Shown here: positions 59,167 to 62,940 of the stretch, piece after piece
Layout: every line of letters begins with the position of its first letter
Position numbering within the stretch: the stretch's first letter is position 1
Assembly (NCBI RefSeq): GCF_025677645.1
Contig: NZ_CP106879.1
Span: forward strand, 3,100,001-3,164,000
From: Curtobacterium poinsettiae
Lineage (GTDB): Bacteria; Actinomycetota; Actinomycetes; Actinomycetales; Microbacteriaceae
Length of the DNA stretch: 64,000 bases
Direction: 5' to 3'
Notes under the pieces: generated by a model
The model's database searches: none
Told to the model about the DNA's origin: nothing
Seen by the model: only the letters and a program-made list of their open reading frames with translations
Made by a program: the position numbers and the translations under genes

Positions 59167-59262
59167 TGGTGTCCTCTCAACGGGACTCCGGGGGCGTTCG
59201 ACGATCGTCGACATCGACGGACGGGTCGCACCCCACGGGTCGCGGGGTCGTCCTGTCCGCCA

Positions 59263-59393
59263 GCGCGCCTCCCATCCGGACTTTCACCGTCGGTCCCGGA
59301 ATCCCACCGGGTCAACCTCTGCCGGGTTCGCACCCGTCATCAGTTCGTGGACTGTCACCACCGGCTCGGAATTCCACCGACCCCGGAGCGCTT
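59263..59393 (-). ncRNA. FMN riboswitch (RFN element)
   Basis: On the minus strand the conserved blocks appear in order: GGTGGAATTCC, GCCGGTGGTGA, AGTCCACGA, CCGGTGGGATTCCGG, GACCGACGGTGAAAGTC and CCGGATGGGAGG, closed by GCGCTCC at 59391 and GGAGGCGC at 59272. These are the RFN signature segments. It precedes ribE, as expected for feedback control by FMN; whether it acts on termination or translation is not decided here. Confidence 0.95.
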
Positions 59394-59499
59394 GCGTAGT
59401 CGGAACGATACCCCAGGCCGCTGACGGCCGCGTCGTTCTGCTCCACCGGCCGTCACGGGGCGTCGCACCCTCGGCGCGCGTGGGCGCATCAGGTGCACC

Positions 59500-59640
59500 G
59501 GCATGTTCCGACAGAGCACTCGTCGATCGACTGGTGTCCTGTCGAACCATGCACGCACATCCGATGCTCGGGCATCTTCCGACGAAGCACGCGTCGATCG
59601 ACCCGCGTTCCGTCGCGGCATGCACACGCATGCTCCGCCG
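59500..59640. repeat. Two imperfect tandem copies of a 71-bp unit
   Basis: GGCATGTTCCGAC at 59500 and GGCATCTTCCGAC at 59571 start two diverged copies, each followed by AGCAC-CGTCGATCGAC and a CATGCAC stretch. The unit lies in the 300-bp gap between the FMN riboswitch and the 3' end of the chaplin-like gene. Both strands carry short open frames but none has a convincing start. The rest of 59394-59695 shows nothing else. Confidence 0.6.
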
Positions 59641-59695
59641 GGCGGCGTGACGACGAGGGGCGCCGCGGGTGCGGCGTCCCTCGTCGTCCTGTCGG

Positions 59696-61558
59696 TCAGT
59701 GCCGGCGACGGAGCACGAGCGTGCCCGCTCCGGCGAGGAGCAGCAGGAGCGCGAACCCGGCCGGCAGGACCGGCGAGCCGGCTCCCGTGTAGGCGAGCTC
59801 CGGCTGGCCGTCACCGGTCGCGGCGGTTGCCGCGACGGTGCCGGCGCTCGTCCGGACCCCGCTGGTGGCAGCGGTGGTGCTGGTCACCACACCCGCCGTG
59901 GAGGCCCGGGTCGGCTCGACCACGCCGACCGCGCCCACCGGGATGGTCGCCGTGCCGGGCGTGGTGCCGGTACCGGTGCCCGTCCCGTCGGTGGGGACGG
60001 TGCCCGGGTCGGTGGCGGGGTCCGTGCCCGGGTCGGTACCCGGGTCCGTACCGGGGTCCGTGCCCGGGTCGGTACCCGGGTCCGTACCGGGATCGGTACC
60101 GGGGTCCGTGCCCGGGTCGGTCCCGGGGTCCGTGCCGGTGCCGGGGGTGGCTCCGGTGCCGTCACCGACGATGCCGATCCCGTTGCCGCCGATGGTGATC
60201 GGCAGGCTGATCACCGGGGTGACCTGGGTGCCGGAGAGCAGGCCGCCGTCGCCGGAGGTCGAACCGCCGGTCGTCGGGGTCGTGGCACCGGTGGCCGGAG
60301 TCGTCGTGCCGCCGGTGCTCGTACCGTCACCGAGGACGCCGATGCCGTTGCCACCGATGGTGATCGGCAGGCTGATCACCGGGGTGACCTGGGTGCCGGA
60401 GAGCAGGCCGCCGTCGCCGGAGGTCGAACCGCCGGTCGTCGGGGTCGTGGCACCGGTGGCCGGAGTCGTCGTGCCGCCGGTGCTCGTGCCGTCACCGAGG
60501 ACGCCGATGCCGTTGCCACCGATCGTCACCGGGACGTCGACGGCCGGGGACACCTGCGTGCCCGAAGCCGTGCCGTCCGAACCCGAGGTCGAACCACCGG
60601 CCGCCGGAGCGGTCCCGGTACCCGTGCCCGCAGCGGGCGCCGTGCCCGTCGCGGCCCCCGTTCCGAGCAGCCCGATGCCGTTGTCCGCCACCGTGACCGG
60701 GATCGAGACGACCGGGGACACCTGCGTGCCCGAGGCCGTGCCGTCCGAACCCGAGGTCGAACCACCGGCCGACGGAGCGGTCCCGGTACCCGTGCCCGCA
60801 GCGGGCGCCGTGCCCGTCGCGGCCCCGTCACCGAGGACGCCGATGCCGTTGCCACCGATCGTCACCGGGACGTCGACCAGGCCGGTCACCTGGGTGCCGG
60901 AGAGCAGTCCGTCGGTGCCCGAGGTCGTGGGCGCCGACGGGGCTTCGGCGGCTGGTGCCGGGGTCGTCGCAGCCGGGGCGGTCGGCGTCGCGGTACCGTC
61001 GCCGAGGACGCCGATCCCGTTGCCGGACACCGTCACGGGGACGGTCACGGCCGGGGTGACCTGGGTGCCGGAACCCGTGCCGTCCTCGCCCGAGGTGCTC
61101 GGAGCGGGAGCAGCAGGCGCCGGATCTGCAGGCGCCGGAGCCGGGGCCGGAGCAGCAGGTGCCGGAGCCGCCGCGGGTGCGGCGGCCGAGACCGCGTCAC
61201 CGGCGACGGCCACGGCGTTGCCGCCGACCGTCACCGGTGCCGTGACGTCCGGCACCACCTGGGTGCCCGAGAGCGTGCCGTCCTGGCCCGAGGTGCTGGG
61301 GGCAGGAGCGGTCGTGGCCGGAGCAGGCACCGGAGCGGCGGTCGTGGACCCGGTCGCCGTCGACACTGCGTCGCCGAGCACGGCGATCGCGTTGCCGCCG
61401 AGGGACACCGGGGCGTCCACAGCGGGGGCCACCTGGGTGCCCGAGACGGTGCCGTCGGCACCGGATGTCGTGGCCGCGTTCGCCGCAGCCGTGCCGCCGA
61501 GCGTGAGCCCGCCGACGAAGAGGGCGAACCAGAGCCCTCTGGAGACGTACTTGTTCAT
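59696..61558 (-). CDS. Multi-repeat chaplin-like surface protein with LAYTG sorting signal
   Basis: A 620-residue secreted protein. A signal peptide ends near residue 28 (TAAANA). Eight chaplin-like repeats follow (SGTQVxPxVxxPVTVxGNGIGVLGD), separated by Ala/Pro/Thr/Gly linkers and without the Cys pair of Streptomyces chaplins. Next come about ten TDPG units near 465-520, a Thr-rich stalk, LAYTG near 590, a hydrophobic helix and RRRH. LAXTG is the class E sortase motif of high-GC actinobacteria, so it should be wall-anchored. ATG at 61558 follows GGGAGTACGACC. Likely role: surface hydrophobicity, adhesion or aggregation. Confidence 0.85.
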   Translation of the reverse strand: MNKYVSRGLWFALFVGGLTLGGTAAANAATTSGADGTVSGTQVAPAVDAPVSLGGNAIAVLGDAVSTATGSTTAAPVPAPATTAPAPSTSGQDGTLSGTQVVPDVTAPVTVGGNAVAVAGDAVSAAAPAAAPAPAAPAPAPAPADPAPAAPAPSTSGEDGTGSGTQVTPAVTVPVTVSGNGIGVLGDGTATPTAPAATTPAPAAEAPSAPTTSGTDGLLSGTQVTGLVDVPVTIGGNGIGVLGDGAATGTAPAAGTGTGTAPSAGGSTSGSDGTASGTQVSPVVSIPVTVADNGIGLLGTGAATGTAPAAGTGTGTAPAAGGSTSGSDGTASGTQVSPAVDVPVTIGGNGIGVLGDGTSTGGTTTPATGATTPTTGGSTSGDGGLLSGTQVTPVISLPITIGGNGIGVLGDGTSTGGTTTPATGATTPTTGGSTSGDGGLLSGTQVTPVISLPITIGGNGIGIVGDGTGATPGTGTDPGTDPGTDPGTDPGTDPGTDPGTDPGTDPGTDPGTDPATDPGTVPTDGTGTGTGTTPGTATIPVGAVGVVEPTRASTAGVVTSTTAATSGVRTSAGTVAATAATGDGQPELAYTGAGSPVLPAGFALLLLLAGAGTLVLRRRH

Positions 61559-61645
61559 GGTCGTACTCCCTGATCGAGATCGTCACCGACCGCGGACGCA
61601 GCCGGGATGTGTGCGTGCCTGCCGTGCCGGACAGGCGCACCGATC

Positions 61646-62940
61646 TCAGTCAGGGGCGACGTCGTGCTCGCCGACGACGGATGCGGGGACCGCGTCGTCG
61701 GAGAGCGTGCCGCGAGACCCCGCGGCGAGGGAGACGATGTCGTCGGCCGAGCCGACGATGCCGACGGCTGCTGCGCCTCCGGAGGTCGAGGAGGCGCTGC
61801 CACCGAGCACGCCGGCGGCGGCCCCGTCGAACGGGAGCCCGTGGCCCTCGGCGTCGGCGGGGACGAGCAACGCGTGTCCGCCGAAGGTCGCGCCCTGTGC
61901 ATCGAGGGCCGTGACGACCCGGCCGACCGTGGCGGTCGTCGCAGCTGCGGCGACCGGCTCCGACGGGCGGAGACGGGCTGCGCGGTGGTCCGTGGCGTCG
62001 GCGCGGACGGGTGTGGGCACGACGGCCGCGGCGGCTCCGGGAGCGACTCCGGGCCGGACGGGTGCGGTCGCGACCGGCACCGACGGGACGGGCCCGGCGG
62101 ACGGGTTCGAGCCGCCGCCCACCGGGAGCGTGGGGACGTCGACGACGGGGTCCGTGCCTCCTGGCAGGGTGCCGCCGACGGCCGGGACGACGCCCTCGAC
62201 CACGTCGGGGACGGCGCCCACGGTCGTGCCGACCGAGCCGAGCGTGTCGTCGACCAGGCCCGTGACCGGGCCGGTCACGGTGCCGAGCGTGTCGTCACCG
62301 AGGACCGTGCCGACCACCGGCACGCTGCCGACCACGTCGTCGACGGTGTCGACGACCGCGGTCACGGGGCGCGCGTCGGTGACGTGCTCCACGGTGCCGG
62401 TGACGGGGCGCAGGACGTTCGCGACGGTGTCCGTGACCGGCCGGGAGGCGCTGCTCACCTCGTCGACGACCGGTCGCACCGGGCGCGTGGCCGGGTGGGC
62501 CGCCGGGGCGGACGTGGTCGGTTGGACAGCCGGTGTGGTCGTGGCCGGAGCGGGGCTCGACGGCGCGGGGGCTGCGGGAGCCGGAGCGGGGGCTGCCGGT
62601 GCCGGTGCGACCGCTGCGGGCGCCGGAGCAGGTGCGGGCGCCGGAGCGGTCGCAGCAGGTGCCGGTGCGGGCGCCGGCGCGACGGCCTTGCGGACGGATC
62701 CGTCACGCCGCCGAGGACCTTGCCGACCTCATCGGTCGCGCCCTGCACGGTGCCACCGACGCCGTCGACGACGCTGCCGACGAGTCCGCGCTGCTCGCTC
62801 GGTGCGGCCGAGGTCGTCGCCGCGGAGGCCGGTCGCGCGCCGAGGAGCAGGGACAGCAGCACGAGGGCGGCGAGGGTCCCGACGCCCAGCAGGACGATGC
62901 GGAGTGCGGCGCGCCAGGGTGCGCGCAACGGGTGGTCCAT
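61646..62940 (-). pseudogene. Frameshifted secreted Pro/Ala/Val-rich protein
   Basis: ATG at 62940 follows AGGAGGTGAGCGC and encodes a signal peptide (RIVLLGVGTLAALVLLSLLL, then ARPASAA) and a start like a secreted repeat protein. The frame breaks within 62686-62706; restoring one base joins it to a frame running to 61646 with a (PA)n stalk, Val/Asp-rich repeats (GSVPVVGTVLGDDTLGTVTGPV) and an Ala/Gly-rich end. Either the gene is inactivated or one base is missing in the sequence. No heptameric slip site is seen. It lies 87 bp upstream of the chaplin-like gene on the same strand. The family is not recognised. Confidence 0.7.

What the first reader, a model, noticed from the sequence alone, without database searches (positions are those of the whole stretch)
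59696..61558. Giant Cys-free chaplin-like protein with class E sortase signal in a non-sporulating actinobacterium
Eight chaplin-like units plus TDPG repeats and LAYTG make a wall-anchored protein far larger than Streptomyces short chaplins and without their Cys. Repeat pairs 7/8 and 5/6 are also nearly identical in DNA over more than 100 bp (periods 165 and 168), so copy number probably changes by recombination. This could be a phase- or length-variable amyloid-like adhesin or hydrophobin-like coat of a plant-associated cell.
Basis: partly seen in the sequence, partly recalled or inferred. Interest (0 to 1): 0.7.

Follow-up and report, generated by a model that had tools for sequence, protein, structure and literature searches.

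The report
Wall-anchored multi-unit chaplin with conserved partner
A Curtobacterium-like bacterium carries a long surface protein built from eight copies of the building block that coats the aerial threads of Streptomyces, and proteins of this kind are usually encoded next to a second, undescribed secreted protein.

Summary
ORF 59696-61558(-) encodes 620 aa: signal peptide, eight PF03777 (chaplin) units, TDPG stalk, LAYTG anchor, no Cys. The genome is Curtobacterium-like and has one class E sortase, but 222 of 249 Microbacteriaceae genomes do too. Such arrays match in 65 of 66 genomes of the genus and 80 of 249 of the family. Unit number differs between species (5-12); internal units turn over by in-frame tandem duplication while the first two keep their identity. 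Length varies but the frame does not, so this is not phase variation; within-species variation could not be tested. Unexpected: an unclassified secreted protein with a conserved C-terminal '(S/A)PD' tail lies beside the array in all 62 genomes tested, across a covarying double hairpin. It was not seen at 10 loci of presumed Streptomyces, and 13 of 80 array genomes had no partner hit. In the window the partner's frame is broken. Best reading: a wall-anchored covalent chaplin-like coat with a dedicated partner; amyloid behaviour is inferred. New variant of a known kind.

The parts
59696..61558 (-). Multi-unit chaplin-like wall-anchored protein, 620 aa, stop codon included
61475..61558 (-). Signal peptide MNKYVSRGLW...AANA (residues 1-28), strongly conserved in Microbacteriaceae relatives; cleavage after ANA is inferred
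60149..61471 (-). Eight chaplin-like units (starts at residues 30, 88, 154, 211, 267, 323, 378, 433) with Pro/Thr/Ala/Gly-rich linkers
60194..60523 (-). Two tandem 165-bp copies, 164/165 identical; unit 7 is a unit 8/unit 6 chimera
59993..60138 (-). TDPG stalk encoded by a 12-bp-based tandem array
59783..59797 (-). LAYTG class E-type sorting motif, followed by a hydrophobic stretch and RRRH
59649..59688 (.). Inverted repeat with 18-nt arms (94% complementary) just past the array's stop codon; probable terminator hairpin (inferred)
61559..61645 (-). Intercistronic region with two hairpins (61611-61640 and 61586-61605), supported by covariation in 40 Curtobacterium-type sequences; no Rfam family over its gathering score
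61646..62940 (-). Partner gene: secreted or membrane protein with Ala/Pro-rich and Val-rich segments and C-terminal EHDVAPD. In the window its N-part (from 62940, open to 62458) and its C-part (62728-61649) lie in different frames; described only

Best explanation
It is an exported, sortase E-anchored surface protein in which eight chaplin-like units are strung on one chain and held off the wall by a TDPG stalk. The array has no basic, aromatic or Cys residues; the units are expected to pair as short beta strands within and between neighbouring molecules, giving an amyloid-like, water-repelling coat that needs no secreted short chaplins: the covalent array does the work that separate short and long chaplins share in Streptomyces. 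Its upstream partner, a secreted-looking protein ending in (S/A)PD, is inferred to be its dedicated accessory (chaperone, nucleator or wall/membrane linker), made from the same transcript, with the hairpins between the genes setting the ratio. Shown: architecture, sortase class, gene pairing, covarying hairpins, unit turnover. Inferred: anchoring in vivo, coat, amyloid behaviour, co-transcription, partner role.
For: Eight PF03777 stretches and the anchor model. One class E sortase in the genome, with SrtE1 5cuw among its 15 PDB sequence matches. No other chaplin-like gene in G000: one place with PF03777, five places with the family model, all inside this gene. 448-residue array with 0 K/R/H, 0 aromatic, 0 Cys. 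Of 249 family genomes 67 have both genes, 13 the array only, 12 the partner only, 157 neither; adjacent in 62 of 62 with coordinates for both. Hairpins on 40 sequences: 97.2% of cells paired, 7 pairs with changes on both sides; on four of five measures 0 of 500 shuffles were as high, on the fifth 87 of 500. Published: ChpE lacks Cys and forms fibrils, as do reduced chaplins (PMC3079736, passages); SrtE enzymes anchor chaplins through LAXTG (PMC5148588, passages). AF2 of the array gives short beta strands and no helix, pTM 0.62.
Against: AF2 confidence is modest (mean pLDDT 63.7, no residue at 90 or above) and no significant fold match was found. Units keep one GN (DN in unit 5) instead of the three GN motifs reported for chaplin domains and lack the Cys pair. 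Linkers are long and the mature protein has GRAVY 0.10, so strong hydrophobicity is not evident. 13 of 80 genomes with the array had no partner hit, and the partner is interrupted in the window, L019 and L036, so it may be dispensable. The hairpins of the nearest relative, L005, fold only slightly better than shuffles (z -1.28).
Confidence: 0.55

Rival explanations
1. A repetitive stalk-type adhesin: the chaplin-like units are stable beta beads that bind a plant or cell-surface ligand, or only act as spacers, with no amyloid or coat formation.
For: Long linkers and stalk, wall anchor, change in unit number, no basic residues in the array. Some chaplins also play a role in attachment to surfaces (PMC4255298, passages).
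Against: Pfam finds no other domain, only PF03777 units. Presence in 65 of 66 genomes of the genus does not suggest a niche-specific adhesin.
Confidence: 0.3
2. A length-variable surface protein whose purpose is variation of unit number within a population.
For: 164/165-identical tandem copies and differing duplications in close relatives.
Against: Turnover is largely confined to internal units; the first two are constant. 24 of 31 complete Curtobacterium arrays have 7 to 8 units and none more than 12. No within-species data. Neutral unequal crossing-over explains the pattern as well.
Confidence: 0.1

Closest known systems
Long chaplins ChpA-C of Streptomyces coelicolor (PF03777, LAXTG, SrtE1/SrtE2)
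   Same: Signal peptide, PF03777 units, class E-type sorting signal.
ChpE (Cys-free short chaplin)
   Same: Chaplin unit without Cys (PMC3079736, passages).
   Different: One unit, secreted free, no anchor.
Chaplin-like protein of non-sporulating Arthrobacter chlorophenolicus noted in PMC4255298 (passages), and NCBI 'chaplin family protein' entries in Microbacterium, Pseudarthrobacter and Cellulomonas
   Same: Same Pfam family in bacteria without aerial growth; probably the same kind of protein.
   Different: A short remark and automatic names; unit turnover, gene pairing and the partner are not described in the passages I saw.
CwpA/CwpB of Actinoplanes missouriensis (SrtE-anchored hydrophobic proteins, PMC13251363, passages)
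   Same: Class E sortase-anchored surface proteins thought to make the surface hydrophobic.

Membership tests
PF03777 (chaplin, ChpA-C) | Profile match over the curated cut-off | tested here: met
   68.2 bits, cut-off 21, 8 stretches
Chaplin domain in the strict sense | Three GN motifs 12-13 residues apart per domain (PMC13251363) | tested here: not met
   One GN per unit, DN in unit 5
Chaplin domain in the strict sense | Two conserved Cys (known exceptions: ChpE; C-terminal domain of ChpB) | tested here: not met
   No Cys in 620 aa; 73 of 80 arrays have none
Long chaplin | Signal peptide, two chaplin domains, C-terminal sortase signal | tested here: met
   with 8 units instead of 2
Long chaplin | Short chaplins in the same genome (reported as universal in sporulating actinomycetes) | tested here: not met
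   PF03777 and A2 models hit only this gene in G000
Class E sortase substrate | LAXTG, hydrophobic stretch, basic tail, class E sortase in the genome | tested here: met
   anchoring itself not tested
Functional amyloid | Cross-beta fibrils, dye binding, surface activity | not testable with these tools
   AF2 short beta strands at modest confidence only
Phase-variable gene | Repeat change alters reading frame | tested here: not met
   Window unit periods 165-198 and the 12-bp stalk repeat are multiples of 3

The most novel reading that the evidence does not exclude
A two-gene surface system, multi-unit chaplin array plus (S/A)PD-tail partner with a conserved double hairpin between them in Curtobacterium, is widespread in Micrococcales and reaches Nonomuraea and Microtetraspora. 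It builds a wall-tethered, intramolecular amyloid coat without aerial growth and without short chaplins, and so shows what chaplins do outside development. The free C-terminal PD tail would be a docking or assembly signal of a new type.
Probability: 0.25. Interest if true: 0.75.

Novelty: new variant of a known kind. Interest (0 to 1): 0.5.

Why it matters
Chaplins are known as the hydrophobic coat of aerial hyphae. A multi-unit, mostly Cys-free version in nearly every sampled member of a rod-shaped genus without aerial growth, paired with an undescribed gene, makes the question 'what did chaplins do before aerial growth' testable in simple, fast-growing bacteria. It also offers a natural covalent-repeat chaplin for structural work.

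Tried and rejected

Considered and rejected: the PD tail as a purely DNA-level element. Ser at position -3 is coded by AGC and by TCN codons, which argues for constraint on the protein; but the Pro codon is CCT 46 or CCC 28 of 74, never CCG or CCA, which I cannot explain.

Results against the reading: 13 of 80 array genomes have no partner hit and four genomes have a strong partner hit but no array hit. One of 66 Curtobacterium genomes lacks an array hit (G979, 790 contigs). Last units are less position-bound (21 of 31) than first ones (30 of 31). In other families the ending of the upstream ORF varies (GTQPD, SRPD, SRPG, VSPA, VSPG, NSPA), and several loci could not be judged because the match lay inside the array or at a contig end (L099, L109, L115-L117, L119). 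Folding of 31 intercistronic stretches, chosen from 65, left 13 with z above -2, L005 among them.

Full report
WHAT IS THERE. The ORF at 59696-61558 on the minus strand is open for 620 codons. It has a signal peptide, eight units spaced 55-66 residues, a TDPG stalk, and LAYTG followed by a hydrophobic stretch and RRRH. Pfam gives one family, PF03777 (chaplin, ChpA-C), E=5.7e-19, eight stretches; NCBIfam gives the LAVTG-type anchor NF058582 over its cut-off. The array of 448 residues has no K, R, H, Cys or aromatic residue. The genome G000 has three sortase matches: one is class E (NF033747 227.4 bits, cut-off 160); the other two score best as class F, one over (174.2) and one under (107.3) that cut-off of 166. 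The only chaplin-like gene found in G000 is this one: one place with PF03777 and five places with a model of the family's own N-terminal region, all inside the gene.

HOW WIDESPREAD. A scan of genome contigs gave 93 relatives, of which the best 80 were kept, in 79 loci: mostly Curtobacterium, also Microbacterium, Leifsonia, Herbiconiux, Frigoribacterium and others, and Nonomuraea and Microtetraspora. The nearest is C. flaccumfaciens LMG 3645 (L005, 89% identity). With the N-terminal model A2, 65 of 66 genomes of the genus, 80 of 249 of the family and 31 of 228 of the order match. With PF03777, 54 of 249 in the family and 52 of 246 in the class. Class E sortase is over its cut-off in 222 of 249 family genomes, so its presence says little by itself; one array genome, G068, had no class E hit.

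CYS. In 73 of 80 arrays (79 loci and the window, each as far as its open frame goes) there is no Cys within the array; L040, L042 and L043 have 2, L071 has 1, and L077, L080 and L082 (Microtetraspora, Nonomuraea) have 12-14, about two per unit. In L042 and L043 the pair sits in the last unit. So the lack of Cys is common in Microbacteriaceae and not a peculiarity of this protein. Cys are not required for fibrils in vitro (PMC3079736, passages seen).

UNIT TURNOVER. 31 arrays of the genus were complete (the window and 30 of 41 loci; 11 were cut, interrupted, masked or not recognised); they have 5 (L054) to 12 (L022) units. By DNA, the nearest relative of a first unit is a first unit of another genome in 30 of 31 cases, of a second unit a second unit in 27 of 31, and never a unit of the same genome. 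By contrast 62 of 149 internal units and 10 of 31 last units have their nearest relative in their own genome; shuffling genome labels among internal units gives 4.1 on average and 12 at most in 200 (comparisons between the window, L005, L007 and L012 left out; with none left out the number is 60). An earlier run on a chosen 29 arrays gave 60 of 145. Of 80 genes, 30 hold a tandem copy at 90% identity or more, five of them at 99.4%; in two of the 30 (L009, L071) the period is not that of a unit. In the window the 165-bp copies differ at one base and unit 7 is a chimera of units 8 and 6. L005 duplicated a different unit, and L007, L012 and L154 have seven. The simplest reading is independent recent gains in close relatives. 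The periods in the window are multiples of three: length varies, the frame does not. Variation within a species was not testable: the genome collections hold one genome per species, and the protein search listed no close Curtobacterium relative among its best 120 of 136.

THE PARTNER. The gene just upstream on the same strand encodes a secreted-looking protein. In 74 of 79 loci an upstream ORF ends within 500 bp in the pattern I looked for, (D/H/P)x(0-3)(P/R)D; the stop codon lies 80-132 bp before the array in 71 of these and 230-339 bp in three. The final D is there by construction; the residue before it is P in 74 of 74, position -3 is A, S, T or N in 74 of 74, and -5 is D in 71. The stricter pattern Dx(SATN)PD ends 72 of 7860 ORFs of 60 or more codons in these loci, and 71 of the 74 partners, so about one other ORF. 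The alignment of 22 partners has invariant A67, A69, P168, D390, P393 and D394. Pfam and NCBIfam have no family for the five partners scanned. In 249 family genomes: both genes 67, array only 13, partner only 12, neither 157; leaving out 13 genomes with weak partner hits, 62 of 66 have the array. In 62 of 62 genomes with coordinates listed for both, the two lie within 3 kb. Shared ancestry inflates any significance value, but the joint pattern over 85 genera and the adjacency are telling. In other families of the order the upstream ORF ends in FDPGSSPD, RPGFAPD, SVAPD, SRPD, VSPA or VSPG among others. In the window the partner's N- and C-parts are in different frames. Of 40 Curtobacterium-type copies in the loci, 36 run from the N-terminal segment to the tail in one frame; L026 and L055 are cut by a contig end, and L019 and L036 look interrupted as in the window.

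THE INTERCISTRONIC HAIRPINS. 31 intercistronic stretches, chosen from 65, fold better than dinucleotide shuffles (mean z -2.4, 18 below -2), against -0.3 and 3 of 31 for coding stretches 250 nt upstream; L005, the nearest relative, reaches only -1.28. On 40 aligned Curtobacterium-type sequences two hairpins give 97.2% paired cells and 7 pairs with changes on both sides; 0 of 500 shuffles reach the observed value on four measures, 87 of 500 on the number of further pair types; slid versions pair in 28-43% of cells. I drew the structure from these sequences, which favours it over slid versions. No run of T follows, so it does not look like a usual terminator; I infer processing or attenuation that sets the ratio of the two proteins.

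STRUCTURE. AF2 of the array with 43 sequences: short beta strands repeated per unit, no helix, mean pLDDT 63.7, pTM 0.62. No significant fold match. This allows, but does not show, stacking of units.

KNOWN AND NEW. PMC4255298 (passages) already notes chaplin-like proteins in Arthrobacter chlorophenolicus, a nonsporulating rod-coccus, and suggests attachment as an older role. NCBI names several relatives 'chaplin family protein'. Searches for chaplin with Curtobacterium, Microbacteriaceae, Microbacterium, Nonomuraea or Arthrobacter, for DUF320, for chaplin domain or Micrococcales, and for chaplin-like and multi-chaplin (open-access library, listings seen, some capped) listed no title on multi-unit chaplins of Micrococcales or on the partner. 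The array is therefore a new variant of the long chaplin; the partner family appears undescribed.

Noticed in passing
61646-62940: Upstream partner gene with C-terminal EHDVAPD; N- and C-parts in different frames in this genome, intact copies exist in relatives.
   Followed up: yes
59260-59394: FMN riboswitch (RF00050, 90.7 bits) on the minus strand ahead of the riboflavin genes, downstream of the array gene.
   Followed up: no
59484-59625: Two adjacent 71-nt copies (76% identical), each near-palindromic, between the array's terminator-like hairpin and the FMN riboswitch; the core pattern occurs nowhere else in the window.
   Followed up: partly
L011:7855-12115: In many Curtobacterium loci ribE starts about 4 kb further from the array than in the window, so other sequence lies in between there.
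   Followed up: no
L071:5953-10174: A Microbacterium relative with 14 unit matches in a 1407-aa open frame that runs off the stored end.
   Followed up: no
L077, L080, L082 (upstream ORF ends 5744, 5770, 5661): Microtetraspora and Nonomuraea relatives have about two Cys per unit and a short upstream gene ending in SISPD or SFSPD; their array C-termini carry VGMTG-, AGVTG- or VGVTG-like motifs instead of LAXTG.
   Followed up: partly
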